DNA of 49,526 nt from an uncultured Pelagibacteraceae bacterium (GTDB lineage Bacteria; Pseudomonadota; Alphaproteobacteria; Pelagibacterales; Pelagibacteraceae): NCBI GenBank assembly GCA_902554035.1, contig CACDMX010000006.1:1-49526 (forward strand). The letters run 5' to 3'. The notes beneath the pieces are model-generated. The model searched no databases, had not been told where the DNA came from, and saw nothing but the letters and a program-made list of their open reading frames with translations. Position 1 is the stretch's first letter. Every line of letters begins with the position of its first letter. Shown here piece after piece: positions 3,868 to 49,518 of the stretch. Made by a program: the position numbers and the translations under genes.

Positions 3868-3868
3868 A

Positions 3869-5739: not shown

Positions 5740-5744
5740 AAATA

Positions 5745-6953: not shown

Positions 6954-6995
6954 AAATTGCTTGATTTTATAGTTCTTCGGGTATAAATACCTCGC

Positions 6996-7523
6996 ATGGC
7001 AAGAGTAACCGTTGAAGACTGTATGGATAAAGTAAAAAGCCCTTACGAGCTAGTTTTGGTAGCCAAAGAAAGAGCTACTCAGCTAAATTCAGGTATAGAA
7101 CCAACAGTTGAAAGAGATAATGACAAAAACACTGTAATTTCTTTAAGAGAAATTGCTGAAGAAAAAGTAAAAGTTTCAGAACTAACTGATAGCGCTGTTT
7201 ATAAATTAAGAAAACATATAGAGCAAATAGACGAAAACCCAGAAGAAGATGAGGAAGTGGGCGATGATTTTCAAAATTTATATAAAGGAGAAATATCTAA
7301 GAGCGGAACGCCAATTCTGCCATCTAAAAGGGCAAGAAAAATTCCAGAAAAAATTAAAGTTTCAAAAGAAGATTTACAGGAATTAAAAGGAACAGCAGAT
7401 CAAAATGTTGAAGCGACTCAAGAAACCAATGAAGATGGAAACATGTCTTTAGACGAGATGTCAGAGGCTGAAAGTCAAACATCTGAAGTAAATAGTGAAG
7501 ATAGCGATACTTCAAATACATAA
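6996..7523 (+). CDS. rpoZ: DNA-directed RNA polymerase omega subunit
   Basis: The first 65 residues (MARVTVEDCMDKVKSPYELV, then the helix around AKERATQLNSG and VISLREIAEEKV) are the standard omega fold that clamps the beta' C-terminus and helps RNA polymerase assembly. The protein is 175 residues, much longer than typical bacterial omega (about 80-130). The extra C-terminal half is strongly acidic and low-complexity, rich in Glu, Asp, Ser and Thr, ending NSEDSDTSNT. A basic patch (PSKRARKIPEKIKVSKEDL) sits between the core and the tail. The gene is followed 22 nt later by dusA. In many alphaproteobacteria rpoZ is next to spoT, which is absent here. Confidence 0.9.
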   Translation: MARVTVEDCMDKVKSPYELVLVAKERATQLNSGIEPTVERDNDKNTVISLREIAEEKVKVSELTDSAVYKLRKHIEQIDENPEEDEEVGDDFQNLYKGEISKSGTPILPSKRARKIPEKIKVSKEDLQELKGTADQNVEATQETNEDGNMSLDEMSEAESQTSEVNSEDSDTSNT

Positions 7524-7545
7524 ATAAATAATATAAAACATAGTC

Positions 7546-10804: not shown

Positions 10805-10959
10805 GTTGATATATGTACATTTTTTTAATTTTTTTATTGATATATTTTTCCTATGTTCTATAAATGTTCTATTGATTTCTAATTTATATAGTATATTAAG
10901 GAAATCTACATACAACATCTAGTTGTTTTACTAAAAACGTTATATATTAAGGGAGTTAA

Positions 10960-13895: not shown

Positions 13896-13902
13896 TATTT
13901 TT

Positions 13903-15920: not shown

Positions 15921-17422
15921 TAAAATATTCCTTTTTTTAAATTCTTTTTAATTTTAGATCTTTTTATTTCTATATTTAATTTATTTAGTTGTCCTGATTT
16001 TAATTTTTTAAGATTTTGTACGTTTTTTAAAAATCCTGCACTCTGCTTTTTGTTTAAAATATTTTCTGTTAAAGTTAAAAACTTATTAATATAATTTTCT
16101 CTTTTAAAAGGTCTTGATCCATATGGGTGGGCATCTGCTTTTTCTTGTTGTTGTGTTATTTTTTTTCCATTTTTTAAAGTTATTACTACTTTCGCACCAA
16201 ATGATTTTTTCTTTGGATTTGGGTTGTGATATTTGTTTGTCCATTTTTTATCCTCATGAGTTTTAATTGATCTCCAAATTTTAAGGGTGCTTTTTCTCTT
16301 AGCTCTTGATTTAGAGTAAGATCTAATATGATGCCAGTCACCGTCTTCAAGTGCTACAGCAAAAATATACATTATAGAATGATCTAATGTTTCCCTGCTT
16401 GCACTAGGATCCATTTTTTGAGGATCATTTGCTCCTGTTCCAATTACATAATGTGTGTGATGACTCGTGTAAATATCAATTTTTTTAACCTGATTTAAAT
16501 TATCTATTTTTTTTCTAAGTTTTTTTGCTAAATCAATTAGAGCTTGTGATTGATACTCTGCGGAATATTCTTTTGTATAAGTCTCTAGTATTGCTTTTTT
16601 AGTTTCACCTTTTTTAGGCAAAGGCACTTTATATAATGCTTTTTTTCCATCTAAAATCCTAGCTATTACACTATCTTCACCTTCATAGATTGGGCTTGGT
16701 GCACCTTCCCCACGCATAACTCTATCTACTGCTTCTATTGCAAGTTTTCCAGCATGAGCTGGAGCATAAGCTTTCCAGCTTGAGATCTCACCTTTTCTTG
16801 ATTGTCTTGTTGAAATTGTAGTATGCAATGCTTGTTGAATTGCCTGATAAATAGTTTCAGTTTTTAATTTAAGCATAGTTCCAATTCCTGCAGCTACACT
16901 TGGACCTAAATGCGCAATATGATCAATTTTATGTTTATGAAGACAAATTCCTTTTACAAGATTTACCTGTACTTCATAAGCGGTTAAAATACCTTTTATA
17001 AGGCTAATCCCACTTAATCTTTTTTGTTGGGCAACTGCAAGTAAAGGAGGAATATTATCTCCTGGATGACTGTAATCTGCGGCTAGAAAAGTATCGTGAA
17101 AATCTAATTCTCTTACAGCTGTTCCATTTGACCATGCTGCCCACTCACAATCTACTTTTATTTTTGAATTAACTCCAAATAGTGTAGCACCGTTATTTCT
17201 TTTATGTTTTAATGCCATTTCCCTAGAAGAGATAACAGCTTTTCTATTTAAAGAGGCAATTGCAACAGATGCATTATCAATTATTCTATTGATAACCATG
17301 TCCACTGATTTTTTATTAAGTTTTGAATTATCACTAGCTATTTCAGCAATTTTCCAAGCCAGTTGTTTTTTCTTTGGCAAGTGTATTTTTGATGGATAAA
17401 CTTTAACTCTATGAATAATCAA
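15920..17422 (-). CDS. prpD: 2-methylcitrate dehydratase (MmgE/PrpD family)
   Basis: A 500-residue MmgE/PrpD protein, the first gene of the methylcitrate operon. It dehydrates 2-methylcitrate towards 2-methylaconitate or 2-methylisocitrate. Visible family features are [28 protein letters not shown] near residue 105-130, [36 protein letters not shown] and the C-terminal [17 protein letters not shown]. No methylaconitase (acnD/prpF) or propionyl-CoA ligase (prpE) is linked, so a general aconitase and another CoA source must complete the cycle. Confidence 0.88.
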
Positions 17423-37167: not shown

Positions 37168-39192
37168 ATGTTATTTATTAAATCGAAGATTAATAAAATT
37201 ATAAAATTTTCATTTTATTTTTTAATATTATTAATAGTTTTCATATTTTATGAATTAATTTCTTTGGATACTTCATATATTAATAAAAGTGCATTTAGTG
37301 TTGATGTGAATAATGTTAGAAACCCACAGGTTAAAAAAATAGTAAGAAATATAGATAATCGATTAGGTCAATTTTATTTTAAAATAAGTAAAAAAAAACA
37401 AAAAGAGTTTTATGAAGTAGATTTAAACAAATATAATAATTTACCAGATGAAATTATTGTCAAACCTAAGCTTAATAATTTAACTTTAACTAATGGTAAA
37501 AATACTAATAATGAAAAAAATTGGAAAAGAAGTCACGGCAATCATTCATCAAATAAGTTCTCTAATTTAAAAAAAATTAATAAAAATAATATAAGTTTAT
37601 TAGATTTAGCATGGACTCATTCATTTGAAAAAAAGGGTAACATTCCAGGAAATCCAATTTACTTTAATGGTACAATATTTCTTTCCTCTACAGATAAATC
37701 TCTTGTAGCATTAAATGCAATTAATGGAGAAAAAAAATGGGAATATAAAACCGAGGGAAAGGCAGCCAGAAGAGGCTTAATGATTCATGGAGAAAAAAAC
37801 CCGAAAATATATTTTTGTGATCTTAAAAATTTAATAGCTCTTGATGCTAAAAATGGAAACCCAATTAAAAAATTTGGTAAAAATGGAAAAATAAAACTTA
37901 AAAAACACTGTCAAATCACTCCGGTCATTGTTGATGATAAAATTATAATTGGTACCTTTGAACCATCAGTAGAAACTTATGATCTGAATAGTGGTAAATT
38001 ACTATGGAGATTTTACCTCAAAGAAAAAAATAATAAATTTTTTAGATACGGTGGAAAAAGATATGACTATTCGGGTGGAAATCCCTGGGGAGGAATTTCA
38101 GCTGATTTGGATAGAAAAATTCTGTACGTATCAACAGGAAACGCTGGACAATTTTATGAAGGAACAACGAGACCAGGTAACAATAAATATTCAAATTCCA
38201 TTGTGGCAATCGATATAGATAAAAAAAAGTTGCTTTGGGAATTTCAAGAAATAGAGCATGATATTTGGAATTATGATATAGCTTCACCACCAATACTAAC
38301 TTCAATTAAAAAAAACGGTAAAATAATTGATGTCGTTGTTGTTCCCACTAAATTTGGTAATACTCTTGTACTTGATCGTTTAACTGGTAATAATGTTTTT
38401 GAATATATTAAAAAAAAAGTACCATTGTCCGAAGTTCCTGGAGAAAAAACATCATTTTATCAAAAAGTTTTTTCATTACCCGAACCATTTTCAAATCAAT
38501 ATTTTAAGGAGGATGACATAACCAATATTTCAAAAGAAAGTTATAATTTTGTAAAAGATAAAATTAAAGGCGCAAATTTCGGTTTATTTTCGCCAAATTC
38601 AGTCGATAAAAAAAATATAATTTATAAAGGTGGTGCTCAATGGATGGGAGCGAGCATTGATAATAATAATTCAATAATGTACTTAACCTCAAATGATATT
38701 CCATCACTTATTTGGTTAGAAAAAAATAAATCTAAACGGTATTACGAATACTCAATGAAATCTGAATTTTTGGTTGATCATTTAGGTTATCCTGGATCTA
38801 AGCCACCATGGGGCAGACTTTCATCAATAGATTTAAGTTCTGGAAAAAAAATCTGGGAAGTTCCTTTTGGAGAGTACGAAGAACTTACAAAATTAGGAAT
38901 TTCAAAAACTGGTACATATAATTTTGGTGGAGTTACTGGAACTGCTGGGGGATTATTATTCGCAACAGGGACCCTCGATAATAAAATTAGAGCGTTCGAC
39001 TCTTCAAACGGTAAAGAAGTATGGGACTATAAAATGTCCTTTTCTGGATCAACTCCACCAACTATTTTTGAGTATTTAGAAGAACAATATGTAATTGTAG
39101 TCTCTACAGGAAGTGTTACTCTTAAATCAACTTATCCAAAGATTTCAAAATATGGTAATAAAATTTATGCATTTAAATTAATGAAAAAATGA
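37168..39192 (+). CDS. PQQ-dependent dehydrogenase (membrane-anchored quinoprotein, glucose dehydrogenase-like)
   Basis: A 674-residue quinoprotein with one N-terminal membrane helix (FSFYFLILLIVFIFYELI) followed by an eight-bladed propeller. Propeller W-motifs recur: ALNAINGEKKWEYK, TYDLNSGKLLWRF, IDIDKKKLLWEFQ, DLSSGKKIWEVP and AFDSSNGKEVWDYK. EIEHDIWNYDIASPP and the GGVTGTAGGLLFATGTLDNKI block match the Gcd-type dehydrogenase family, which oxidises sugars or alcohols in the periplasm and reduces ubiquinone. Known Gcd has five N-terminal helices; only one is here. No pqq synthesis genes are nearby, so the cofactor may come from elsewhere. It overlaps the next gene by ATGA. Confidence 0.85.
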   Translation: MLFIKSKINKIIKFSFYFLILLIVFIFYELISLDTSYINKSAFSVDVNNVRNPQVKKIVRNIDNRLGQFYFKISKKKQKEFYEVDLNKYNNLPDEIIVKPKLNNLTLTNGKNTNNEKNWKRSHGNHSSNKFSNLKKINKNNISLLDLAWTHSFEKKGNIPGNPIYFNGTIFLSSTDKSLVALNAINGEKKWEYKTEGKAARRGLMIHGEKNPKIYFCDLKNLIALDAKNGNPIKKFGKNGKIKLKKHCQITPVIVDDKIIIGTFEPSVETYDLNSGKLLWRFYLKEKNNKFFRYGGKRYDYSGGNPWGGISADLDRKILYVSTGNAGQFYEGTTRPGNNKYSNSIVAIDIDKKKLLWEFQEIEHDIWNYDIASPPILTSIKKNGKIIDVVVVPTKFGNTLVLDRLTGNNVFEYIKKKVPLSEVPGEKTSFYQKVFSLPEPFSNQYFKEDDITNISKESYNFVKDKIKGANFGLFSPNSVDKKNIIYKGGAQWMGASIDNNNSIMYLTSNDIPSLIWLEKNKSKRYYEYSMKSEFLVDHLGYPGSKPPWGRLSSIDLSSGKKIWEVPFGEYEELTKLGISKTGTYNFGGVTGTAGGLLFATGTLDNKIRAFDSSNGKEVWDYKMSFSGSTPPTIFEYLEEQYVIVVSTGSVTLKSTYPKISKYGNKIYAFKLMKK

Positions 39193-40073
39193 AAAAACAA
39201 AATAATTTTAAAACAAAAATAATCCAGGGTGACGTAATAAAATTATTAAAAAAAATTCCTAAAGATTTAAAATTTGATGTTGTAATTGCGGACCCCCCAT
39301 ACAACATTGGTAAAAACTTCGGCAATAATAATGATAATATGAACTTAAATGACTATGTTAATTGGAGTAAAAAATGGATTTCTGAATGTTTTAGAGTGTT
39401 ATCAAAAGATGGTCTTATATATATTTATGGATTTCATGAAATATTGGCAAGAATTTCAGTTGAATTTCCAATTGAGGAACAGAGATGGTTAGCATGGCAT
39501 TACACAAATAAAATAATACCATCTTCAAACTTTTGGCAAAGATCACACGAAGCGATATTATGTCTTTGGAAACCAAAAACTAAAAGGCCAAACTTAGAAA
39601 TAGATCAAATTAGAGAACCTTATACAGAGAGTTTTTTAAAAAACGCTGCCGGCAAAATTAGAAAAAATACAAAAGGGAGATTTGGTAAGAAATCAGATAC
39701 AATTTACAATGCAAACAAAAATGGTGCAATGCCAAGGGATGTTATACGTATACCTGCATTAGCTGGTGGCGCGGGGAGATCTGAAAGATGGTTCTATTGT
39801 AGAGATTGTAAAGGTCCCACTAGACCTCCAAAAGATTTACAAAAACATATTAATTGCAATATTTTAAAACACCCAACCCAAAAACCTATGGATCTCACCA
39901 AAAAGTTAATTCTTTCTAGAATTAACAAAAAACGTAAAGGAAATTTATTGATACCATTTGCTGGCTCTGGCTCAGAATGTGTAGTTGCAAAAAAATTAGG
40001 CATACCTTTCTTTGCAACTGAAATTAATCCTGAATATGTAAAATTTGCAAAAAGCTGGTTAAAAAAAATATGA
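39189..40073 (+). CDS. Site-specific DNA methyltransferase (beta-class N6-adenine or N4-cytosine)
   Basis: A 294-residue beta-class amino-methyltransferase: catalytic motif IV DPPYNIGKNFG at Asp35 comes first, the AdoMet motif I FAGSGSE at Phe257 last. The target-recognition region lies between, roughly residues 110-230. That region has CRDC (Cys204, Cys207) and a third Cys223 flanked by His residues, possibly a small zinc-like knuckle. DPPY is compatible with N6-adenine or N4-cytosine methylation; the target sequence cannot be read. It overlaps the PQQ dehydrogenase stop and the start of the downstream putative nuclease (both ATGA), consistent with a type II restriction-modification pair. 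Confidence 0.85.
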   Translation: MKKQNNFKTKIIQGDVIKLLKKIPKDLKFDVVIADPPYNIGKNFGNNNDNMNLNDYVNWSKKWISECFRVLSKDGLIYIYGFHEILARISVEFPIEEQRWLAWHYTNKIIPSSNFWQRSHEAILCLWKPKTKRPNLEIDQIREPYTESFLKNAAGKIRKNTKGRFGKKSDTIYNANKNGAMPRDVIRIPALAGGAGRSERWFYCRDCKGPTRPPKDLQKHINCNILKHPTQKPMDLTKKLILSRINKKRKGNLLIPFAGSGSECVVAKKLGIPFFATEINPEYVKFAKSWLKKI

Positions 40074-40627
40074 CAATAATAAGTGAAAAATTTTTACAAA
40101 ACCTTAAAAAAAATTTATTAGATCACCATAAAGTATACAAAAAAATAAGATGTAAAGCTGAGTATCTCGAAGAAGTTTTAACTTCGTCTTTTGAATTATC
40201 TGGTTTTAATGTTAGCTGGAAACCAGGGTCACATGATAAAAAAAAAGATTTAATAGTAAGAAATAATAGTTTATCGGTTAAATCAGGTGTTTTGATGCCA
40301 AAAAAGAAAATGTTAGAAATTTCAGGACATCGTCTGACTAGATTTGATCGTAACCTAAATAAAATTTCAAAATACTTGAACAATTCTACAGATACACTTT
40401 GCGTTTATAATCCTAAAGGAAAATCCTTAGATCACAAATACTCTTTAGCTTTTATTAAAAAAGAAATGTTTTCTGGTATTGTAGAAAGTAAATGGAAAGA
40501 TTTGGGAAAATCTTACATCCAAAGTAATGATTATGGGGTACAATTTAAAATTCAAAAAGATATGAGTGATCAAATATGGTGGCAAATTCCTATAAAAAAT
40601 TTAGATATTGATGAGATAATAATTTGA
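40070..40627 (+). CDS. Putative type II restriction endonuclease
   Basis: A 185-residue protein with no close family that I recognise by eye. Its context is strong: a 4-nt overlap downstream of a DNA methyltransferase. It has a plausible PD-(D/E)xK core in which Asp60 (KKKDLIV) precedes S-V-K at residues 69-71, i.e. an SxK variant of the usual ExK. A helical N-terminus with the strand SGFNVSWKPGSHD precedes the core, and W-rich strands follow (WWQIP near 168-172). The most likely role is cleavage of unmethylated foreign DNA. It ends 13 nt before the first copy of the island promoter repeat. Confidence 0.6.
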   Translation: MTIISEKFLQNLKKNLLDHHKVYKKIRCKAEYLEEVLTSSFELSGFNVSWKPGSHDKKKDLIVRNNSLSVKSGVLMPKKKMLEISGHRLTRFDRNLNKISKYLNNSTDTLCVYNPKGKSLDHKYSLAFIKKEMFSGIVESKWKDLGKSYIQSNDYGVQFKIQKDMSDQIWWQIPIKNLDIDEIII

Positions 40628-40640
40628 GTGGATTATATAA

Positions 40641-40687
40641 AAATTATACTTACTACCCTTGTTCAACTATAAATATTAGCATAAATA
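40641..40687 (+). promoter_or_regulatory. Orphan tRNA-Leu promoter copy (R1), island left edge
   Basis: The 47 nt align without gaps to 43394-43440 with about six mismatches. The copy retains -35 TTGTTC (40659-40664), a 17-nt spacer and -10 TAAATA (40682-40687). In the other copies this promoter sits 18 nt upstream of a tRNA-Leu 5' half. Here the match stops right after the -10, and an autotransporter remnant follows. It is therefore a promoter left without its gene by deletion. Confidence 0.7.
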
Positions 40688-40694
40688 ATCAGTA

Positions 40695-40805
40695 AGTTAT
40701 AAGAAAGATTTAAATGGTTTTGATATCAGAATGAGCTCAAATTATAGCTTGATGAGCAAAATACCTGAATATGGTGCAACTATTGAGATTGTAAATACAT
40801 TTTAG
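40695..40805 (+). pseudogene. 3' remnant of an autotransporter gene (last 36 codons)
   Basis: The bases align without gaps to the end of the intact autotransporter (45730-45840), with 9 differences in 111 positions by eye. The reading frame is intact to the stop, and only three of 36 residues differ (K/R, K/Q, I/L). It ends in ...EIVNTF like the intact gene. There is no start codon, signal peptide or passenger. It lies 7 nt after the -10 of R1, so a deletion removed everything between the tRNA promoter and the last beta-strands of a paralogous cargo gene. Confidence 0.85.
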
Positions 40806-40832
40806 AAAATATGGCTTAATTAATTTGCTCAA

Positions 40833-40863
40833 ACAAGAGCAAGACAAGAGCATGTGAAGATAA
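40833..40863 (+). repeat. Paired repeat, unit 1 left (ACAAGAGC x2)
   Basis: ACAAGAGC occurs at 40833-40840 and 40844-40851, an 11-nt period. AAGATAA follows at 40857, with the AAGATA start 13 nt from the second repeat start. It lies 18 nt before the serine hydrolase start and is preceded by AATTTGCTCAA, the shared left-end leader. Confidence 0.7.
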
Positions 40864-40880
40864 TATAATAGGAATATATT

Positions 40881-42152
40881 ATGAAAAAACTTTTAGGAAT
40901 CTTGGTTCTGGGTTTGTTGTGGTGCAATATTAGTTTTGCCCAGGATTACAGGATAAAAAATTTTATCAAGTGGTTATATGAAAATGGTCATAATCAGTAT
41001 GTTGAAAAAGATTCGGATGGAAAATTACAAACTAATTTAAAACTTAAATTAAATCCAAGAAAAAGAAACATTGATTATGATTCAAACCCAAACAGAGACA
41101 CGCTACTTTATTATGTGTGGGACTTCACATATGGATTAAGAAACTCGTATGAGGTTAAACCTTCTAAAGAACCTTATGAATTTAAATTTAATTTAATTGA
41201 AGATAAATTTGTAAAAAAACAAATGAAAACTAAAGGCATTCTTAGTTATTTGTATTACCAAGATGGCGAAGTATTAATTGATGAATTTTCTCCCAAAGAA
41301 AGATTAGGAGAGTTTTTAAACAATGAGACAAAATTTTTTTCAATGTCAATGGGTAAGTCAATAACTTCTTATGTACTTGGTCATGCGATATGTGAGGGCT
41401 ATATTGACGGAGTTGATGCAAGAGTAAATGACTGGCCTATAATAAAAGATTCACTTTATCATGATCAAAAGTTAATTGATTTTTTGAATATGAGTACTGG
41501 TGATCAAAAATATATCGATGAATTTAAATCTTACATGGGCACAACTAAATTAACCAATTATGAAGATAACAGTATTTCCCAAACAATGAGAGTTTCTCTT
41601 AAAGACTCGGTTAAATCAAAAAGTATCTATAATTATAATGGATTTGTTACGCAGCTTATTATCAATTATACAAAGCATAAAACAGGTGATGATTATGAAA
41701 AACTCTTAAATAAAATTTTTGCAGATAAGGTAAAAATTAAATACAGCATTCTTCCTTATAGAAATAGTGGCACGGGCCAAGGAAAGTTACATCCAACTAT
41801 AAGTGCAACCAGATATGATTGGCTAAGGATTGCAAAAGCAATAATGGATGACTATCAAAATGATACTTGTGTTGGTAAATATTTAAAAACAATTTATGAA
41901 AGAAGAATACCGAAGAATAAAACCGAACCAAAATTTAATCGTACCAAATCCTATGGGGGTCAATTTCATATGGATTATCCAGGGTTAAAAGATAGAGTTG
42001 TATTTGGCTTTGGTGGTTACGGCGGAAATGCAATTTTAATTGATGTCGAAAAATCTAGGATAGTAGTCCTTAATTCAGTCCACTATAATAATAAAAAATT
42101 TAAATATAATGTGAAAAAACTTTTAATTGATCCAATTAAAAAAGGAAAATGA
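40881..42152 (+). CDS. Secreted serine hydrolase, beta-lactamase / penicillin-binding family
   Basis: A 423-residue protein with signal peptide MKKLLGILVLGLLWCNISFAQ and a beta-lactamase-type serine hydrolase fold. The SxxK motif is S156-M-G-K159 within FFSMSMGKSITSYVLGHA, the standard nucleophile/base pair. A tyrosine-rich YNYNG (250-254) stands where the family has its catalytic Tyr, and GFGGYGGNAILID near the C-terminus corresponds to the third active-site strand. Likely targets are peptides, esters or cell-wall links in the periplasm; a true antibiotic resistance role is not implied. An AGGA ribosome site lies 8 nt before ATG. It overlaps the protease gene by 4 nt. It is cargo of unit 1. 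Confidence 0.8.
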   Translation: MKKLLGILVLGLLWCNISFAQDYRIKNFIKWLYENGHNQYVEKDSDGKLQTNLKLKLNPRKRNIDYDSNPNRDTLLYYVWDFTYGLRNSYEVKPSKEPYEFKFNLIEDKFVKKQMKTKGILSYLYYQDGEVLIDEFSPKERLGEFLNNETKFFSMSMGKSITSYVLGHAICEGYIDGVDARVNDWPIIKDSLYHDQKLIDFLNMSTGDQKYIDEFKSYMGTTKLTNYEDNSISQTMRVSLKDSVKSKSIYNYNGFVTQLIINYTKHKTGDDYEKLLNKIFADKVKIKYSILPYRNSGTGQGKLHPTISATRYDWLRIAKAIMDDYQNDTCVGKYLKTIYERRIPKNKTEPKFNRTKSYGGQFHMDYPGLKDRVVFGFGGYGGNAILIDVEKSRIVVLNSVHYNNKKFKYNVKKLLIDPIKKGK

Positions 42153-43333
42153 AAAAGCTTTTAGGGATCGTTTTTTTTAGTTTGTTGTTAAGTGGTAACG
42201 CTTCTGCGAAAGAAATACTATTTAGCAACAATGATGTAGTTGTTATTAAAGATAGGTTCTTCACGTATGCTAATGATAAAATTGCTAAAAATTATTGTAA
42301 TAGTAAAAATAAATTTTTTCTAAGACTTTCAATGAATGGGTTGGTAAGCAATAAACCAGCAGATTATGTCAGGTATTATTGTGTTAATAGTAGGGAAGAC
42401 TTTATTTCAAAAATAGATACAATTACTGATAATTTTCCATCAAGATATTTTAACAAAGCTACTGCCTGGTCTTTAAAAAGAGAATTTATTAATGGAAGCG
42501 ACGTCCCAGGTATTGTTGCTGGTGGAAATAATTATGTTTATAACTTCCCAGAACTTGAGGTGAAAGAAAAAGTTGCAGAAAAACCTAAAGAAACTCCAAA
42601 AAAGAAAAAACCCAAGAAACAAACTGAACAAAAAAGTAATGATGAAAAAATATATTCAGTTGGATCAGGTACTGGTTTCTTTATTAATCGTTCAGGTCAT
42701 ATCGTAAGCAACAACCACGTAATTGACTCATGTAATGCTGTTAAACTTCATTATAAAGGCAAAGTGACACCCGTTACTATTCTTGCAACTGATCGATCTA
42801 ATGACCTTTCTTTAATGAAAGTAGATACTAAACCAGATGATGTATTTCCAGTTGCTATAAATGATGCAAATTTATTAGATGATATTTTTGTTGCTGGATT
42901 TCCATTTGGAAAAACTGTCAGTTCATCTGTTAAAGTTACCAAAGGGGTCGTTAGCGCACTTACAGGAATTGCAAATAACTACTCTAATATTCAAATTGAT
43001 GCTGCTTTACAACCTGGTAACAGTGGTGGCCCAATAATAAATAAGGAAGGTAATGTAGTAGGAGTTGCTGTTGCAAAACTGGATTATAAAATAATACTAA
43101 AAAATTACGACACAATTCCAGAAGGGACCAACTTTGGAATTAAATCATCAACTGTTCAACAATTTATTAAAGCTAATAATGTTAAATCAATGCAACCAAA
43201 CAAAAGAGAAATGTCCACAAAAGATATTGGAGCGAAAATACAAAAAGCAACTGTGTATTTGGATTGTTTCATGACTGCTCAGCGATATGAAAAGCTTAAA
43301 TCAAAAAAAGTCATGTATAAAAATATTGAATAA
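42149..43333 (+). CDS. Secreted trypsin-like serine protease (S1C/Deg-like) with N-terminal domain
   Basis: A 394-residue exported protein (signal peptide MKKLLGIVFFSLLLSGNASA). The first ~145 mature residues are an uncharacterised domain, then a Lys/Pro-rich linker (KPKETPKKKKPKKQTEQK). A trypsin-like domain follows with His190 (SNNHVIDS), Asp219 (NDLSLMK) and Ser292 (PGNSGGP), all in place. There is no PDZ domain, unlike DegP or DegS. The C-terminal ~50 residues are basic. It probably cleaves misfolded or specific periplasmic proteins. It is coupled to the serine hydrolase by an ATGA overlap and begins with nearly the same signal sequence. It is cargo of unit 1. Confidence 0.85.
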   Translation: MKKLLGIVFFSLLLSGNASAKEILFSNNDVVVIKDRFFTYANDKIAKNYCNSKNKFFLRLSMNGLVSNKPADYVRYYCVNSREDFISKIDTITDNFPSRYFNKATAWSLKREFINGSDVPGIVAGGNNYVYNFPELEVKEKVAEKPKETPKKKKPKKQTEQKSNDEKIYSVGSGTGFFINRSGHIVSNNHVIDSCNAVKLHYKGKVTPVTILATDRSNDLSLMKVDTKPDDVFPVAINDANLLDDIFVAGFPFGKTVSSSVKVTKGVVSALTGIANNYSNIQIDAALQPGNSGGPIINKEGNVVGVAVAKLDYKIILKNYDTIPEGTNFGIKSSTVQQFIKANNVKSMQPNKREMSTKDIGAKIQKATVYLDCFMTAQRYEKLKSKKVMYKNIE

Positions 43334-43355
43334 CTTTATAGGATAATACGGGATA

Positions 43356-43389
43356 ACCAGTACATGACCAGTACACAGAGAGATAAAAT
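43356..43389 (+). repeat. Paired repeat, unit 1 right (ACCAGTACA x2)
   Basis: ACCAGTACA occurs at 43356-43364 and 43367-43375, an 11-nt period. GAGATAAAAT follows at 43380-43389, 13 nt after the second repeat start. Its hexamer CAGTAC does not match the unit's left copy AAGAGC, unlike units 2 and 3. Confidence 0.75.
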
Positions 43390-43411
43390 GAAAAAATTTT
43401 ACTTATTAGTC

Positions 43412-43440
43412 TTGTTGAATTATAAATATTAGCATAAATA
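43412..43440 (+). promoter_or_regulatory. tRNA-Leu promoter copy in R2
   Basis: -35 TTGTTG is at 43412-43417 and -10 TAAATA at 43435-43440 with a 17-nt spacer. The tRNA 5' half begins 19 nt after the last -10 base. The same layout is seen in R1 and R3, which supports it as the promoter of the ancestral tRNA gene. It may still fire into unit 2. Confidence 0.6.
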
Positions 43441-43458
43441 CTCATGAAATTCACAAAT

Positions 43459-43497
43459 GCCCTCGTGGTGAAATTGGTAGACACAAAGGACTTAAAA
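43459..43497 (+). pseudogene. tRNA-Leu(UAA) 5' half, truncated in the anticodon loop
   Basis: The sequence begins GCCCTCGTGGTGAAATTGG and continues through a D-arm (TAGACAC) and 5' anticodon stem AAGGA to the loop CTTAAAA, with anticodon TAA. It matches the standard bacterial tRNA-Leu 5' half. The 3' half (variable arm, T-arm, acceptor strand) is absent: after the loop the sequence becomes AACATAGGG. It is identical over 39 nt to the copy at 45981. It is read as a displaced attachment-site half, not a functional tRNA. Confidence 0.88.
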
Positions 43498-43520
43498 AAC
43501 ATAGGGTAGGGTTAATTCAT

Positions 43521-43550
43521 AATCTCATATAGTCTCATTCAGTCTCAAAT
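43521..43550 (+). repeat. AGTCTC array, 3 x 10 bp (unit 2 left end)
   Basis: Three direct repeats start at 43521 (AATCTC), 43531 (AGTCTC) and 43541 (AGTCTC) with an exact 10-nt period. The first starts 24 nt after the last base of the tRNA half, the same distance as in the second array. It resembles arm-type integrase sites; that role is inferred. Confidence 0.75.
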
Positions 43551-43623
43551 CCCATATAATCCTACACTTTTATAAAACCATCATTTATTTTTATTGGAAA
43601 GTATGAATAATAAATTTTGTCAA

Positions 43624-43656
43624 ACTAGAACTAGACTAGAACCTGGTGAGATAAAT
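43624..43656 (+). repeat. Paired repeat, unit 2 left (ACTAGAAC x2)
   Basis: ACTAGAAC occurs at 43624-43631 and 43635-43642, an 11-nt period. GAGATAA follows at 43648, 13 nt after the second repeat start. Bases 43624-43644 are identical to 45878-45898 at the other end of the unit. It lies 34 nt upstream of the autotransporter start. Confidence 0.8.
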
Positions 43657-43689
43657 ATATTAAAATAAATTAATTGATGATGAATTGTT

Positions 43690-45840
43690 GTGAAAAATAT
43701 TTATAAAATTCATTACATTGTATTTTTTTTAGCTTTATTTTTTTCTAAAGCTATAGCGGAGCCAACTCTTGTACGTAGTAAGGCAGTTGAAAATGTAACT
43801 GCTGACTTCTTAACAATGGCATTAACTTTTAATAACGATGGAACCAAAATGTATACATCATCGATGAGGCCAGGGGGAACTGGAGATAAGGTTTATGAGT
43901 ATGATTTAACAGCAGCTTACAATATTTCTACTGCAACCTTACGCACCAGTATAAATGTAGGTTCATACTCTGGTTCAGCAACTGGTATTCATGGAGCTAT
44001 GCAAGTTGTATTCAATAACGACGGTACAAAAATGTTTATTGCCGATCATCATAAAACAATTATTGAATGGACGTTAACTACACCATACGACATTGATACT
44101 GCAAGTACTACTTATAATGCAGGTCAAGGTTATGATACAAACCCAAATAACAAAAGACTGACCTCAGTTGCATTTAATAACGATGGAACTAAAATGTTTG
44201 TTACTGGAAACCACAAATCAGAAAACCCTCAATCAATTCACGAATACACACTTGATACCCCATTTGTTATTGAATCAGGAGTTACTCATGTTCAAGAAGT
44301 ACAACCTGATGATCTTCAATCAGATTACGTAGATGGAATTGTTTTTAATTACGACGGTACTAAAATGTTTATAACTTCCGGTGGAGAAAGCGGGGGAGAT
44401 AATAAAATTAGGCAGTATAAATTAACAACAGCTTTTAGTATCGCCACTCTATCACTTGAGGGAACTGTTGAATTATCTAACTACAGCGGCTTAGGAAGTG
44501 GAAGAGAAACAGCATTTAATTCTGATGGAAGTAAAATGTTTGTAATTGATGTGGATGCAGAAGTTTATGAATTTGATTTAACTTGTAATTGGAGCATAAT
44601 TGATGATACTTGTGATGATCCAATAACTACTACTGATGGTAGTAAAGATATTTTAAGCTCAATCGAGTCTCAAACTGCAACAGCAAAACAAATTGCTATT
44701 CAAGCAAGTGCTCCAGTTCTTAACCGTATGTATTGGTTAAGAAGACATAGAAATAATGATCAATTAAGTAACCAAAATATTAGATTAAACTTTTCTAATT
44801 CAATGGTGGCATCGCTTTCTAACATTATTCCCATATCAAATAAAACAAATGAAGTTCTAGACAAATTATCAGATGATTGGTCATTTTGGAGTGAGGGTAG
44901 TGTAAGTATTGGTAGAACCGGAGATACATCTACTTCATCATCTAAAAAAATTAATACCAAAGGTATTACACTTGGCATGGATAAAAAGATAAGCAAAAAT
45001 AGATTATATGGTTATGCTCTTAGATTTGGTAATGATGATGTTGATGTCGGTGCATCTGGGACTAATTTAGATACTGAGTCTTTTAGTTTATCTGTTTATG
45101 GAACTTTTCCTCATGATGATGAAAAATTTACTGAAGGTATCATTGGAGTGAGCACTTTAAAGACTGATCATGTTAGGAAAGGGGGAGGAAGTACCAGAAC
45201 AGGAGAGAGAGATGGTGCACAAATATTTGGTTCACTTAACTACTTAACAACATATAAAAAAGAAGATTTAAATGTTACTCCTAATTTAAGAATTGATTTA
45301 AGCTATACAGAATTATCCAAATATAGAGAAAAAGGTCCTGCAGCTCTAGTTTACAAAGCTCAAACAATTGAAACTGGAATGATATCTACTGGTTTTACCA
45401 TCAGTGATATTCTAAATTATAATTCTTTTACGTTTAAACCAAATGGTGGATTAGAGATTGGAGTAGATTTTAGTCCGTCTTCAGACGCTACGTATCGTTA
45501 CTTATCGGAAACTACAGAATATACAAAATCAATTGATCAAGATTCTAAAAATTTAAGAGCAAATATTGGATTTGATTTAATAACTGAGAACGGTTTTTCT
45601 GTAATGACTATTTATGAAAGAAATCAAAGTGATAATGCTCATAGCGATACTTTATATTTAGGATTTGGTTTTATACCATCAGACGATATTGAATATGCTA
45701 TGACTTTAGATAATGACAAAGCATCTTTGAGTTATAAGAGAGATTTAAATGGTTTTGATATCAGAATGAGTTCGAATTATAGCTTGATGAGTCAAATACC
45801 TGAATATGGTGCAACCCTAGAAATTGTAAATACATTTTAG
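43690..45840 (+). CDS. Autotransporter with beta-propeller-like passenger
   Basis: A 716-residue outer-membrane protein beginning at GTG; signal peptide MKNIYKIHYIVFFLALFFSKAIA. The passenger has five copies of a repeat built on AFNNDGTKMF (around residues 46, 108, 154, 216 and 276), each followed by a turn and EYxL/YDLT, suggesting a 5-blade or larger propeller. After a Cys-containing linker (CNWSIIDDTCDDP) and a helix near 320-340, the C-terminal ~320 residues alternate polar and aromatic strands and end ...EIVNTF, a typical terminal Phe of beta-barrels. A surface adhesin or phage- or grazer-exposed protein is likely. It is sole cargo of unit 2; a truncated paralogue is at 40695-40805. Confidence 0.85.
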   Translation: MKNIYKIHYIVFFLALFFSKAIAEPTLVRSKAVENVTADFLTMALTFNNDGTKMYTSSMRPGGTGDKVYEYDLTAAYNISTATLRTSINVGSYSGSATGIHGAMQVVFNNDGTKMFIADHHKTIIEWTLTTPYDIDTASTTYNAGQGYDTNPNNKRLTSVAFNNDGTKMFVTGNHKSENPQSIHEYTLDTPFVIESGVTHVQEVQPDDLQSDYVDGIVFNYDGTKMFITSGGESGGDNKIRQYKLTTAFSIATLSLEGTVELSNYSGLGSGRETAFNSDGSKMFVIDVDAEVYEFDLTCNWSIIDDTCDDPITTTDGSKDILSSIESQTATAKQIAIQASAPVLNRMYWLRRHRNNDQLSNQNIRLNFSNSMVASLSNIIPISNKTNEVLDKLSDDWSFWSEGSVSIGRTGDTSTSSSKKINTKGITLGMDKKISKNRLYGYALRFGNDDVDVGASGTNLDTESFSLSVYGTFPHDDEKFTEGIIGVSTLKTDHVRKGGGSTRTGERDGAQIFGSLNYLTTYKKEDLNVTPNLRIDLSYTELSKYREKGPAALVYKAQTIETGMISTGFTISDILNYNSFTFKPNGGLEIGVDFSPSSDATYRYLSETTEYTKSIDQDSKNLRANIGFDLITENGFSVMTIYERNQSDNAHSDTLYLGFGFIPSDDIEYAMTLDNDKASLSYKRDLNGFDIRMSSNYSLMSQIPEYGATLEIVNTF

Positions 45841-45877
45841 CAAATTTAACTAAAACTCTATAGGATAATACAAGATA

Positions 45878-45911
45878 ACTAGAACTAGACTAGAACCTAG
45901 GGAGATAAAAT
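45878..45911 (+). repeat. Paired repeat, unit 2 right (ACTAGAAC x2)
   Basis: ACTAGAAC occurs at 45878-45885 and 45889-45896, an 11-nt period, with GAGATAAAAT at 45902-45911. The 21 bases from 45878 equal those from 43624, so the autotransporter is bracketed by matching copies of one site. Confidence 0.8.
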
Positions 45912-45933
45912 AAAAAAAATTTACTTATTCGTC

Positions 45934-45962
45934 TTGTTCAATTATAAATATTGGCATAAATA
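45934..45962 (+). promoter_or_regulatory. tRNA-Leu promoter copy in R3
   Basis: -35 TTGTTC is at 45934-45939 and -10 TAAATA at 45957-45962 with a 17-nt spacer. The layout matches R1 and R2. It points towards the helicase gene and could transcribe the tRNA half and the unit 3 leader. Confidence 0.6.
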
Positions 45963-45980
45963 CTCATGAAATTCACAAAT

Positions 45981-46019
45981 GCCCTCGTGGTGAAATTGGT
46001 AGACACAAAGGACTTAAAA
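45981..46019 (+). pseudogene. tRNA-Leu(UAA) 5' half, second copy
   Basis: The 39 nt are identical to 43459-43497 and again end with CTTAAAA at the 3' edge of the anticodon loop. The sequence then becomes GGCGAGGG, unrelated to the missing tRNA 3' half. The identical breakpoint in two places is what a site-specific crossover in the anticodon loop would leave. Confidence 0.88.
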
Positions 46020-46219: not shown

Positions 46220-49200
46220 ATGAATACTTTAACTACAATTATAAATCAATTAGATAGAGAAGGTAAAGATTTCGAAAAATTGTCAAAATGGTATTTAGAA
46301 AATGAGCCAAAATTTAAAAAGATTTTTAAAAAAGTTTGGCACTTTAAAGACTTTCCAAAGAGGTGGGGTGCAGATAAAGGAACTGATTTAATTGCAGAAA
46401 CAAATGATGGAGAATTTTGGGGTATCCAGGCAAAAAATTATGATAAAAAATATTATATAAAAAAGTCAGACGTTGATTCATTTTTAACGGATACTAGCAG
46501 AAAATTAATATCTAGAAGATTAATTATAGGGACCACCAATCTACTTGGAAGCAACGCTCTTAAAACTATTCATGATCAAGAAAAACCAGTTAATTTAGAA
46601 TTGCTAGACAGTTTAGAAAGAGCAGAGGTAAATTGGCCAAAAAATTTATCAAATTTATATCCATCGAAAATAAAAAAACACACGCCATGGAAATGGCAAC
46701 ACAAAGCAATAAATCAAATAATTAGAGACCTGAAAAAAGAAAACAAAGGCAAAATAATTATGGCTTGCGGGTCAGGTAAAACAGAAATGGGTATATGGAT
46801 TAAGGAAAGATTAAAATCAAAAAAAACTCTGATTGTGGTTCCAACAATATATTTAATGACACAAACAGTAGATAGATGGTGTGCACATTCAAGTGATAAT
46901 TTTGAATTTCTGGCTGTTTGTTCAGATAAAACAGTTGTTAACAAAGACTCACTTATTAAATCAATAAGTGAAACAGTTTTACCAAGCACCACAGACCATC
47001 AAAAGATAGCAAGATTTTTAAAGGATAAAAAAAATTCAATAATATTTTCAACATATGATTCGCTAGGAGCTGTAATTAAAGCAACCAAAATAAACTCAAC
47101 TAAATTTGATTTTATAATATCTGACGAAGCTCACAGAACGGCTAGTGCAAAAAAAAGTAAATTTTCACTTATTCATGATCAAAAACTATTACCAAGAAAA
47201 AAAATAATTTATATGACAGCAACCCCAAGAATTCATTCCCCAGCAGTTAAAGAAAAAGCTAAAATTTCTGAAATTTATTTAAATTCAATGGATGATGAAA
47301 CATATGGAAAAACACTTTATAGACTTTCTTTTTTAGAAGCAGTTAAAAAAGGAATTTTAACTGATTATAGAATCTTTATAATAGGCTACGAAACAGCTGA
47401 ATATGAAGAATTTATTAAAAAAAGATCTTTTTTAAAGTTTAAAAAAAAAATTAAAAGTGACGCTAAATCTTTAGCTCTTAAATTTTCTTTAATAAAATCT
47501 TTTAAAAAATATAATGCAAAAAAAATATTATCCTTTCATACTAGAATAAAATCCGCAAAATCTTTTGCTAATGAGTTTTTTGAATTAGATAAAATTGGTT
47601 ATTTAAAATCAAAAGGTATAAATAAATTCTGGTCCTCATGGATTGAAGGAAATATGTCTTCTTTCAATAAAAAAAATCTAATTAAACAATTCAAAACTAA
47701 CTCTAGCGAAACTTTTTCTTTATTAACAAATGCAAAATGTTTAACCGAAGGTATTGATGTGCCAAGAATTGACACTATTTGTTTTTTAGATCCAAAAAAA
47801 TCTCAAGTAGATATTGCCCAAGCTGTTGGAAGGGTTATGAGAAAAGTTAAAGGAAAAAAAATAGGAAATTTAATAATACCAATACCTGTATCAAATAAGG
47901 AGCATATAGAGGAAAAAATTTATAAGTCTGAATACAAAGAAATCTTTGCAGTAACTAATGCAATGCGTGATCATGATGATGATTTAACTGAAGTATTAGA
48001 AAATTATAGAAAAGGGCTTGGACCTAAAACATCCAACAAAAGAAGTATTGGTAAAATTATAATTGATCTACCTGAATCTGTTAGTGAGAATTTTTATAAT
48101 GAATTAAAATTGAAAATTGTTGATAGAACGACATCACTTTCTAGAGGTATGATAAGTCTTATTTCTGATTATAAAAAGAAATATAAAAACTTAAATTTTT
48201 CACAAAAAGATAAAAAACCTTTTGATAAATTGTTTACCTGGGTTGATACAATGAGAGCTTTAAATAGGCAAAATAAAATTCCTATTTGGATAAAAGATGA
48301 ATTAAATAAAATTAAAGATTTTTCATGGAGAGTAAACGGCCAAACATTAGATAGTGTTGAAAACCTTTTACCCGAAAGTATTTTTGCGAAAAAGGTTGGA
48401 TATACAAGAATAAGAAAATTAAGAGAGAAAAAATTAATTACCCCAATAGGCTTTTATCCAACAATGGGGCAGGGTGATAAATCTCAAAAAAAAGAAAGAA
48501 GATTAAGTGCTTATTATTCTTTAGATCAAAGAAAAGAGTTAAAGAATCTTGGAATACAGAAAATTGATTTTAAAAAATATATTTTAAAAGAAGAAGCAAT
48601 TAAATTACCAGGAATAACAGGTGCTACTTTTAAAAACAATACATTTAATATAGCAAGCAAAGGTATTACAGGTGGAGGAATTACTAATTGCTATGACAGA
48701 AAAATTGTTGAAAAATATTCAAGAGATTATCAAAAAAATACAGGATTAAAGGAAATAATTTCACCATCAGTTGAAAAGATTGATAAACAAGAGAAGTTAA
48801 AAAAAGAAACAATCTTAGAAAAATTTAAAAAAATTGGTTTAATATCGGGTAGCAAAGCTCATAAAATAGTTGGACACTATATTGATCAAAATCGTCTAAA
48901 ACCTGAGAAAAAAATTAAGGCAGGAAAGTTTAATTGGTTATTTTATGATTTAAAAAAAGTTAAAAAATTACGTGATGAAATAAAAAAGGAAAATCAACAA
49001 AAAAAACAATTTTTAAATGAGACGGATGTTAGAAATGAATTTAAATTAAAAAATATAGGAACGTATAGAAGAAAAAAAATTATTATTCCTGATTCAGAAT
49101 ATTTTCCAGATAAAAAAAGTAGAAAAAATAATGATCCCAAGCCACTTTACTTAAGAAAAACTATATCTAATTTTTTAAAAAAAAATAATGTTACCATTTT

Positions 49201-49465
49201 TAATAATGATAAATATTTTAATATAACAGAATTATGTAATAAATCAGGTTATACAAATGTACAAAATTTATATGATAACGGTTTATTAAAGGAGGCTGGT
49301 ATTGGAATTACAGAGGCTGGCTTTTCAAAATTATTTGATAAAAAAACTGTTAAAGAAATTAAAAAGATTAACAAATTAGCAATTAAGCTTGGATTTTCTA
49401 GAGGAAAAAATGTTTATATTAAGACAAATCAATTCAAAAAATTAAAAGAAGCGCTTAATAAATAG
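46220..49465 (+). CDS. Mrr-like nuclease / SF2 helicase fusion, putative defence protein
   Basis: A 1081-residue protein. Residues ~15-120 are a Mrr-like PD-(D/E)xK nuclease: Asp56 in KGTDLIAE and Q70-A-K72 in WGIQAKNY. Residues ~150-580 are an SF2 helicase: Walker A ACGSGKT (182-188), DEAH (302-305), TAT (333-335), and motif VI QAVGRVMR (534-541). This order matches the N-terminal part of type ISP restriction enzymes and the predicted helicases of COG4889. No methyltransferase motif (xPPY, FxGxG) follows. Instead the C-terminal ~400 residues contain at least four short segments like winged-helix/MerR DNA-binding units (near 715, 870, 935, 1000). It is sole cargo of unit 3, likely acting against invading DNA. 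Confidence 0.8.
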   Translation: MNTLTTIINQLDREGKDFEKLSKWYLENEPKFKKIFKKVWHFKDFPKRWGADKGTDLIAETNDGEFWGIQAKNYDKKYYIKKSDVDSFLTDTSRKLISRRLIIGTTNLLGSNALKTIHDQEKPVNLELLDSLERAEVNWPKNLSNLYPSKIKKHTPWKWQHKAINQIIRDLKKENKGKIIMACGSGKTEMGIWIKERLKSKKTLIVVPTIYLMTQTVDRWCAHSSDNFEFLAVCSDKTVVNKDSLIKSISETVLPSTTDHQKIARFLKDKKNSIIFSTYDSLGAVIKATKINSTKFDFIISDEAHRTASAKKSKFSLIHDQKLLPRKKIIYMTATPRIHSPAVKEKAKISEIYLNSMDDETYGKTLYRLSFLEAVKKGILTDYRIFIIGYETAEYEEFIKKRSFLKFKKKIKSDAKSLALKFSLIKSFKKYNAKKILSFHTRIKSAKSFANEFFELDKIGYLKSKGINKFWSSWIEGNMSSFNKKNLIKQFKTNSSETFSLLTNAKCLTEGIDVPRIDTICFLDPKKSQVDIAQAVGRVMRKVKGKKIGNLIIPIPVSNKEHIEEKIYKSEYKEIFAVTNAMRDHDDDLTEVLENYRKGLGPKTSNKRSIGKIIIDLPESVSENFYNELKLKIVDRTTSLSRGMISLISDYKKKYKNLNFSQKDKKPFDKLFTWVDTMRALNRQNKIPIWIKDELNKIKDFSWRVNGQTLDSVENLLPESIFAKKVGYTRIRKLREKKLITPIGFYPTMGQGDKSQKKERRLSAYYSLDQRKELKNLGIQKIDFKKYILKEEAIKLPGITGATFKNNTFNIASKGITGGGITNCYDRKIVEKYSRDYQKNTGLKEIISPSVEKIDKQEKLKKETILEKFKKIGLISGSKAHKIVGHYIDQNRLKPEKKIKAGKFNWLFYDLKKVKKLRDEIKKENQQKKQFLNETDVRNEFKLKNIGTYRRKKIIIPDSEYFPDKKSRKNNDPKPLYLRKTISNFLKKNNVTIFNNDKYFNITELCNKSGYTNVQNLYDNGLLKEAGIGITEAGFSKLFDKKTVKEIKKINKLAIKLGFSRGKNVYIKTNQFKKLKEALNK

Positions 49466-49484: not shown

Positions 49485-49518
49485 ACTTGCACAAGACTTG
49501 CACATGGAGAGATAAAAT
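49485..49518 (+). repeat. Paired repeat, unit 3 right (ACTTGCAC x2), start of R4
   Basis: ACTTGCAC occurs at 49485-49492 and 49496-49503, an 11-nt period, with GAGATAAAAT at 49509-49518, 13 nt after the second repeat start. TATAGG precedes at 49476, as in R2 and R3, although about 10 nt of the R2/R3 spacer is missing. The window ends 8 nt later, just where the promoter copy would begin. Confidence 0.8.

What the first reader, a model, noticed from the sequence alone, without database searches (positions are those of the whole stretch)
46220..49465. Single-chain Mrr nuclease-helicase without methyltransferase and with a multi-module DNA-reading tail
The nuclease and helicase parts resemble type ISP restriction enzymes, but the methyltransferase and target-recognition domain are replaced by ~400 residues with four short winged-helix-like segments (e.g. 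ESIFAKKVGYTRIRKLREKKLI near 715; NITELCNKSGYTNVQNLYDNGLL near 1000). A protein that cuts DNA without self-methylation needs another way to spare the host, such as recognising DNA ends, modification state or a host mark. This would be a candidate stand-alone defence system in a group where few are known.
Basis: partly seen in the sequence, partly recalled or inferred. Interest (0 to 1): 0.7.

Follow-up and report, generated by a model that had tools for sequence, protein, structure and literature searches.

The report
Restriction motor riding a tRNA cassette
A SAR11 ocean bacterium carries a DNA-cutting motor protein that resembles a known restriction enzyme but has lost its DNA-marking half; the gene sits alone in a tiny mobile cassette inserted in a tRNA gene, one of a tandem row of such cassettes, which suggests that these streamlined cells swap defence genes one at a time.

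Summary
The ORF is real (46220-49465, 1081 aa). Residues 2-596 match the type ISP enzyme LlaBIII (E 5e-81); there is no methyltransferase. The tail holds a probable HA-like module and at least two winged-helix modules; the last folds like MerR DNA-binding domains (AlphaFold pLDDT 85.5, Z up to 8.6). In the same order (SAR11) 13 of 397 genomes have a match; 11 lack the methyltransferase part.

Each element starts with a copy of the tRNA 5' half and carries, near both ends, a paired 8-9-bp direct repeat of period 11 whose sequence is largely private to the element. In 55 such intervals, 42 had the left pair and 39 the right; where both were found the units agreed in 35 of 35; control windows 1 of 2729. 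Larger sister elements with the same ends encode a ~545-aa tyrosine integrase and may move the integrase-less ones in trans. Best reading: methyltransferase-less restriction motor, probably defence cargo. How it spares the host, its function and its mobility are untested.

The parts
46220..49465 (+). Mrr nuclease - SF2 helicase - HA/winged-helix tail protein, 1081 aa; sole gene of element E3
46301..46642 (+). Mrr_cat_2 nuclease domain (residues 28-141; D56, K72)
   Evidence: E 1.4e-29; positions
46682..47230 (+). SF2 helicase first half (ResIII, 155-337; K187, DEAH 302)
   Evidence: E 8e-25
47504..47842 (+). SF2 helicase second half (Helicase_C, 429-541; QAVGRVMR 534)
   Evidence: E 2e-12
48125..48328 (+). 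probable HA-like module (residues ~636-703)
   Evidence: alignment with HA of relatives; own Pfam match only E 0.084; not listed by my HA profile
48362..48550 (+). winged-helix (MerR-like) module, residues 715-777
   Evidence: leave-out HMM E 1.5e-4
49172..49462 (+). winged-helix (MerR-like) module, residues 985-1081 (HMM match 998-1050)
   Evidence: leave-out HMM E 1.7e-6; AF2 pLDDT 85.5; MerR folds Z up to 8.6
45981..46019 (+). tRNA-Leu(TAA) 5' half: left boundary of E3 / right boundary of E2
   Evidence: identical to first 39 nt of tRNA-Leu 12421-12506 in L070
46147..46165 (+). E3 left paired repeat ACTTGCAC x2, period 11
49485..49503 (+). E3 right paired repeat ACTTGCAC x2, period 11
45902..46019 (+). 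outer direct repeat (region before the tRNA + 5' half); a further copy at 43380-43497; the contig stops at 49526 about 18 bp into what looks like a third copy
43498..46019 (+). element E2 (2.5 kb), paired repeats ACTAGAAC at 43624 and 45878, cargo autotransporter 43690-45840
43356..43374 (+). right paired repeat (ACCAGTAC) of element E1; likely cargo ORFs 40881-42152 and 42149-43333 (trypsin-like)

Best explanation
It is a methyltransferase-less relative of type ISP restriction enzymes, carried as the only gene of a small (~3.6 kb) integrative element in the tRNA-Leu(UAA) gene of a SAR11 bacterium. Shown by sequence: Mrr nuclease and SF2 translocase modules with their key residues, no methyltransferase, a tail with at least two MerR-like winged helices, and element ends (tRNA half, matching paired repeats). 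Inferred: the tail finds a DNA site or structure on incoming DNA, the motor then translocates and the nuclease cuts, as in type ISP enzymes, so that the cassette protects the cell (or the resident elements) from phages or rival elements. Host sparing is the weak step; most likely the host lacks productive (paired) sites or the sites are masked or modified. Also inferred: the element, which has no integrase, is moved in trans by the ~545-aa tyrosine integrases of sister elements with the same kind of ends.
For: Domains and LlaBIII match. No methyltransferase in the protein; none linked in relatives (with the limits told in the report). Tail modules real and MerR-like. Element; 35 of 35 intervals with both pairs have matching units, against 261 of 1190 cross-element comparisons; control windows 1 of 2729. 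Ten of the 13 copies show flanking direct repeats, tRNA halves or paired repeats (window, L041, L060, L063, L064, L065, L066, L068, L069, L070); L061 and L062 showed none that I could assign, and L067, on a 3.1-kb contig, was not examined for them. One copy is 99.3% identical (24 of 3273 nt differ) between two genomes whose downstream flank is 66-86% identical. A full type ISP R-M enzyme (L060) sits in the same kind of element, and cargo of sister elements includes other R-M parts. Integrase-like protein in sister elements L111, L185, L197 (Pfam over its cut-off only in L197); the units of L185 and L197 recur in cargo-only elements.
Against: No functional data. Cargo is not only defence: autotransporter, pilin-like N_methyl, MORN, KARI and ComA proteins too. 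No integrase of this family in G000 or in 11 other carrier genomes. No integrase element with the window's own unit ACTTGCAC was found: 14 viral contigs held the pair but none with the start of the tRNA in the stretch held; 7 of 300 genus genomes held it, and the large G602 interval with that unit showed no integrase in the ten of its 22 ORFs scanned. One form of the cargo left junction was in 0 viral contigs. The right end of E3 lies beyond the contig, so E3 is not seen whole. Thirteen of 55 intervals lack the left and 16 the right pair. Most of the tail is unmodelled.
Confidence: 0.6

Rival explanations
1. Modification-dependent (type IV-like) restriction: the tail reads a modified base on phage DNA, so no protective methylase is needed.
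For: No methyltransferase in the protein and none linked in relatives; a winged-helix tail could read modified DNA (inference).
Against: No known modification-reading domain in the Pfam scan; MerR-like folds usually read sequence (general knowledge).
Confidence: 0.17
2. Not defence: a helicase-nuclease for DNA transfer, recombination or repair of mobile DNA, like the telomere-linked helicase TtrA needed for conjugation of SLP2.
For: Several Streptomyces helicase-HA proteins lie within about 3 kb of plasmid ends (rows); TtrA described as a putative DEAD-box helicase required for conjugation (PMC8743542, passages); window protein groups with Rhodococcus HA proteins in the tree.
Against: The Streptomyces matches shown start at query residue 132-164, so they seem to lack the Mrr part (25 of 517 records listed); no conjugation genes in the element; full type ISP R-M enzyme in the same element type.
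Confidence: 0.12
3. Homing-type selfish cassette: the protein cuts the empty tRNA gene and so spreads its own element.
For: Single gene between repeats at a tRNA gene, with a DNA-binding tail and a nuclease.
Against: Elements with the same ends carry unrelated cargo and no such nuclease; sister elements carry tyrosine integrases; the tRNA is restored, so the target would persist.
Confidence: 0.05
4. It is the restriction half of an R-M system whose methylase is the PF01555 enzyme at 39189-40073.
For: Methylase 6.1 kb upstream in the same contig.
Against: A 185-aa ORF overlaps it by 4 bp and is the likelier partner; it lies outside the element; no such enzyme in the flanks of 12 relatives; next best match in the 28 other genomes searched, carriers included, only E 4e-13.
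Confidence: 0.04

Closest known systems
Type ISP restriction-modification enzymes (LlaBIII, LlaGI)
   Same: Mrr nuclease + SF2 translocase in one chain, residues 2-596 aligned to LlaBIII; a full ISP enzyme rides the same element type in a relative (L060)
   Different: No match to the coupler, methyltransferase or target-recognition part; outside the ISP group (100/100) of the tree
Actinobacterial 'DEAD/DEAH box helicase' with HA repeats (Rhodococcus WP_064689746.1; Streptomyces telomeric helicase-HA proteins, TtrA type)
   Same: Rhodococcus protein: Mrr + SF2 + 8 HA repeats, no methyltransferase; nearest of those compared by BLAST, 34% over 15-703
   Different: Window has at most one weak HA module and then MerR-like modules; the Streptomyces rows shown seem to lack the Mrr part; that these are TtrA is inferred from place and description
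Tycheposons, VEIMEs, PICI and other satellites or hitcher elements (named in PMC11389934, passage; original papers not held)
   Same: Small cargo-bearing elements in marine bacteria, tRNA-directed in the tycheposon case (PMC10872708, passages); helper dependence likely here
   Different: Here mostly 1-4 kb, often one gene, no recombinase, tandem arrays, paired 11-bp-period repeats at both ends

Membership tests
Type ISP R-M enzyme | N-terminal Mrr-family nuclease | tested here: met
   E 1.4e-29; D...QxK
Type ISP R-M enzyme | SF2 helicase-like ATPase | tested here: met
Type ISP R-M enzyme | coupler and methyltransferase | tested here: not met
   LlaBIII match stops at 596; no Pfam MTase; no [NDS]PP[YF]
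Type ISP R-M enzyme | target-recognition domain | tested here: not met
   tail modules are HA-like and MerR-like; nothing after 596 aligns to LlaBIII
Type ISP R-M enzyme | belongs to the ISP group of the motor core | tested here: not met
   nine ISP rows one group 100/100 without the window; the window is a long branch (1.28), so its exact place is unsure
Type IV restriction enzyme | cuts only modified DNA | not testable with these tools
   needs enzyme assay
Helicase-HA family (TtrA type) | HA domain after the helicase | tested here: inconclusive
   E 0.084 in the window, strong in relatives; own HA profile did not list it
MerR-like winged helix | HTH + two-strand wing + helix fold | tested here: met
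   residues 985-1081: Z 8.6 to SoxR 2zhh (2.0 A, 68 aligned), mostly MerR-type proteins in the top rows; Foldseek alone gave no E of 0.001 or less, best 0.018
tRNA-directed integrative element | insertion in a tRNA gene with duplicated tRNA part | tested here: met
   left half and both paired repeats in the window; right half not seen because the contig ends; both halves seen in L068, L070, L201
Autonomous satellite / tycheposon | encodes its own site-specific recombinase | tested here: not met
   single gene in the part seen; no large integrase in G000, an 86% complete genome
Phage satellite | packaged in virions by a helper | tested here: inconclusive
   integrase-bearing sister L111 is a viral contig with the tRNA half near both ends; one form of the cargo left junction in 0 viral contigs

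The most novel reading that the evidence does not exclude
SAR11 genomes house a previously undescribed exchange system of gene cassettes: integrase-less elements of 1-5 kb, mostly one to three genes, stacked head to tail in tRNA-Leu(UAA) and other sites, each tagged at both ends by its own pair of 11-bp-spaced repeats that decides which helper integrase (from ~8-kb virus-like elements) can move it. Restriction motors with swappable DNA-reading tails are one class of cargo, so a streamlined cell gains and loses defence one gene at a time.
Probability: 0.45. Interest if true: 0.88.

Novelty: new variant of a known kind. Interest (0 to 1): 0.7.

Why it matters
SAR11 are among the most abundant cells in the sea and are described as having few phage defences. 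If right, some of the missing defences sit as single-gene cassettes at a tRNA hotspot, where tools that look for islands, integrases or methylases may miss them. It also poses a testable enzymology question: how a type ISP-like motor works and spares its host without a methylase, and whether tails of three kinds (HA arrays, winged helices, another ~55-aa repeat) are interchangeable site readers. The paired repeats predict which integrase moves which cassette.

Tried and rejected
Homing by the nuclease itself: dropped, since the same ends flank unrelated genes. Methylase 39189-40073 as partner: dropped. The idea that the tail reads the paired repeats: not supported, because elements without this gene have them too.

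Led nowhere: protein searches of viral contigs and genome contigs with the window protein found no relative, though a relative does lie in viral contig L132; integrase protein search of viral contigs found none; one form of the cargo left junction gave 0 viral contigs; the ACTTGCAC pair gave 14 viral contigs, none with the tRNA start in the stretch held; the 15.5-kb G602 interval with the same unit shows no phage gene or integrase in the ten ORFs scanned. The model of the tail is poor, and its best PDB matches, mostly MerR proteins, have E 0.4 or worse. The 'I' tails have a repeat I recalled as phage-integrase-repeat-like; Pfam gave no such match, so the name is recall only. Papers: no description of such SAR11 elements in the listings; the tycheposon and VEIME papers are not held, so novelty against them is not settled.

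Selection to note: the 40 array loci were picked from genomes with at least two tRNA halves (69 of 250 by my hand count); 5 further loci were added (window, L060, L066, L068, L070). Of 116 cargo ORFs of 140 aa or more (the G602 interval L200 left out before) I scanned 94; left out were the integrase elements L185 and L197, near-duplicates of L169, L188 and L192, and two small ORFs of L066. Only the first 25 of 78 (Pfam) and 120 (PADLOC) families were shown. The tree used 31 rows chosen by hand. In one search I meant to use five methylase queries; the fifth (from L058) is a release factor by its look, so four count; two ORFs there with a DPPY-type motif (L061, L063) carry it in a setting unlike a methylase. 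In one search my filter hid 40 of the 140 shuffled tails; one search shows all, and the best shuffle is 0.079, not 0.26.
Full report
OBSERVATION. The ORF 46220-49465 (+) is complete and encodes 1081 aa; its stop codon lies 61 bp before the end of the contig, which is the whole window. Pfam gives Mrr_cat_2 (28-141), ResIII (155-337) and Helicase_C (429-541) above their cut-offs. By sequence the nearest solved structure is the type ISP enzyme LlaBIII, aligned over 2-596 with E 4.8e-81. The best PADLOC model, a type IIG restriction enzyme-methyltransferase, matches over 14-590 only. There is no methyltransferase family match and no [NDS]PP[YF] motif.

TAIL. A profile made only from modules of two relatives (L068, L069) finds 998-1050 (E 1.7e-6) and 715-777 (E 1.5e-4) of the window; the best of 140 shuffled tails reaches 0.079 and the best control protein 3.2. 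Residues 985-1081, predicted with an alignment of nine module sequences, give mean pLDDT 85.5 and the order helix-turn-helix, two-strand wing, helix. Foldseek has no match at E 0.001 or below; it ranks 3ucs (CbpA J-domain with CbpM) first (E 0.018) and mostly MerR-type proteins after it. VIA-align gives SoxR 2zhh Z 8.6, 2.0 A over 68 residues, and MerR-type proteins in most of the first 39 rows. The stretch about 636-703 aligns with the HA domain of the relative L041, but in the window itself the HA match is only E 0.084, and my own HA profile did not list it. The segments between are unsupported; the model of residues 575-1081 has pLDDT 51.7.

RELATIVES. In the window's order, 13 of 397 genomes have a match at 1e-10, the window's own included. 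By reading their tails: six (window, L041, L063, L068, L069, L070) have an HA-like module plus further segments, in L068, L069 and the window winged-helix-like; five (L061, L062, L064, L065 short, L066) have arrays of another repeat of about 55 aa; two (L060 full, L067 cut by its contig) are ISP forms. Mrr-helicase proteins without methyltransferase and with 3 to 13 HA repeats also occur in Rhodococcus plasmids, Myxococcota, Elusimicrobiota, Verrucomicrobiota and Bacteroidota. A tree of 31 cores puts all nine ISP rows in one group (100/100). The window groups with the two Rhodococcus proteins and the ISP side (100/99), away from the five other SAR11 proteins of its tail class, which sit with HA proteins of other phyla. 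The window is a long branch (1.28), so its place is unsure; but by BLAST its tail is nearest to those five (by phmmer to four of them), which hints at tail exchange.

NO LINKED METHYLASE. In the flanks held of 12 methyltransferase-less relatives, no ORF of 100 aa or more resembles four methylase queries. In 12 carrier genomes, the window's included, no C5 methylase passes its cut-off (one weak match, in G919). PF02384 matches in all 12 genomes (19 places): ORFs of about 280 aa, one of them (G000) beside what looks like a release factor gene (so probably PrmC, by recall), ORFs of 352-374 aa of the CcrM type (compare), and the window's own methylase; apart from this last one, none is on the contig of the nuclease gene or, in the two single-contig genomes, within 200 kb of it. 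The window does have a PF01555 methylase at 39189-40073, overlapping by 4 bp a 185-aa ORF without a Pfam match. Among 29 genomes searched it scores E 7e-207 at home and 4e-13 at best elsewhere. It lies outside the element described next.

THE ELEMENT. Two Pelagibacteraceae records, L079 and L080, share this kind of gene with 24 differences in 3273 nt, while the downstream flank is only 66-86% identical: a recent transfer of a few kilobases. Self-comparison showed direct repeats around the gene and ARAGORN placed tRNA genes at them: tRNA-Leu(TAA) for L070, tRNA-Met(CAT) for L041, tRNA-Thr(TGT) for L064, L065 and L066. In the window there is no complete tRNA, but two exact copies of the first 39 nt of tRNA-Leu(TAA), at 43459-43497 and 45981-46019. 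After each comes a pair of 8-bp direct repeats with period 11, and a pair of the same unit stands near the other end: ACTAGAAC at 43624 and 45878 (E2, around an autotransporter gene) and ACTTGCAC at 46147 and 49485 (E3, around our gene). The contig stops 18 bp into what would be the next copy of the outer repeat, a likely assembly break. A pair ACCAGTAC at 43356 closes a further element, E1. From the usual spacing (103 bp to the next half) E3 should measure about 3.6 kb; whole sister elements measure 3623 (L068), 3659 (L201) and 4102 (L070).

IS IT CHANCE? Of 250 genus genomes, 179 hold the 39-mer with at most one mismatch, and the reversed control has none in the rows shown; by my count of that listing 69 hold at least two. 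I fetched 40 of those and added 5 loci. Between successive halves there were 55 intervals of 1.0-15.5 kb, 22 of them with a single ORF of 60 aa or more. In the expected 15-16 positions, 42 of 55 have the left pair and 39 of 55 the right, against 1 of 2729 control windows inside the elements; where both exist (35) the units agree in all 35 (at least 6 of 8 letters), against 261 of 1190 cross-element comparisons. Units are not all private: several recur in different genomes. The last half in an array mostly runs on into TCCTTGCC, as in an intact tRNA-Leu.

WHO MOVES IT? Sister elements with the same half and right-hand pair (L111, a 7.8-kb viral contig with the half near both ends; L185; L197) begin with a 545-551-aa protein. 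It matches Phage_integrase in L197 (E 3e-10, over the cut-off) and L111 (E 5e-5, under it); L185 is 48% identical to L111. L111 and L197 also encode a protein matching AEP-TOTE primase and DUF5906. Copies of the unit lie inside the start of the integrase gene. The units of L185 (ACTAGAAAC) and L197 (ACCAGCACA) recur in cargo-only elements (four each: L173, L187, L191, L199; L070, L166, L169, L181). That fits mobilisation in trans. Against it: this integrase is absent from G000 and 11 other carrier genomes, no integrase element with ACTTGCAC was found, and one form of the cargo left junction occurs in no viral contig. Several viral contigs that look like pelagiphages to me also carry the tRNA half, one of them (L115) beside a 283-aa integrase, without a repeat pair in the stretches examined.

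CARGO. Among 94 cargo proteins scanned, four of them of our own family, the 25 families shown include ResIII in five, Mrr_cat_2 in four, Mrr_cat in two, N6_Mtase, Methylase_S, DUF3427 and caspase in two each and trypsin in four, but also N_methyl pilin-like, MORN, KARI and ComA; PADLOC adds type I, II, IIG and IV R-M models. Defence is thus frequent, not universal. A complete type ISP enzyme (L060, 1608 aa) lies between two tRNA-Leu halves.

HOW IT MAY WORK. Type ISP enzymes recognise an unmodified site, translocate and cut where two enzymes meet; methylation of one site of a pair is enough to protect the host (PMC4666363, passages). Here the motor and nuclease are kept and the recognising half is replaced. 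I infer that the tail supplies recognition, that cutting still needs two converging motors, and that the host is spared by lack of productive site pairs, by a mark, or because only certain DNA (ends, modified bases) is recognised. None of this is tested.

KNOWN OR NEW. As an enzyme it is a new variant of a known kind; it fails three tested features of type ISP and should not be filed as one. As an element it resembles marine satellites (tycheposons and VEIMEs, named in PMC11389934, passage), but the original papers are not held. My four literature searches on SAR11 islands and elements listed nothing that describes it.

Noticed in passing
window 39189-40627: PF01555 DNA methylase overlapping by 4 bp a 185-aa ORF without family match; possible small type II R-M pair, unlike the genus CcrM.
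   Followed up: partly
window 40630-43497: Left end of the array looks decayed: what seems a remnant of an autotransporter 3' end, an unpartnered repeat pair ACAAGAGC at 40833, then a 423-aa ORF and a trypsin-like protein before the ACCAGTAC pair.
   Followed up: partly
L111, L126, L130, L132 (viral contigs); L185, L197: Elements with a ~545-aa protein, integrase-like where tested, at the same tRNA-Leu site; likely helpers. L132 also holds a 966-aa Mrr-helicase with the other repeat tail.
   Followed up: partly
L064, L065, L066; L042 (another family of the class): Mrr-helicase with ~55-aa repeat tail at tRNA-Thr(TGT): duplicated 49-58-bp tRNA 3' part in the first three; L042 only lies next to that tRNA.
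   Followed up: partly
L079 about 7551-7778; L080 about 5120-5347: Here the target seems to be the 5' end of a 75-aa protein gene, not a tRNA; the element appears to restore its start.
   Followed up: no
L169, L188: Array elements with many consecutive ~175-aa related ORFs, perhaps the pilin-like N_methyl matches.
   Followed up: no
L178 7336-9771: Single-gene element with an 811-aa protein whose family matches are C-terminal Mrr-type nuclease domains.
   Followed up: no
L200 (G602) rc 911-16406: 15.5-kb interval with the window's unit ACTTGCAC at both ends; DUF4116, GIY-YIG and PD-(D/E)XK proteins, no integrase in the ten ORFs scanned.
   Followed up: partly
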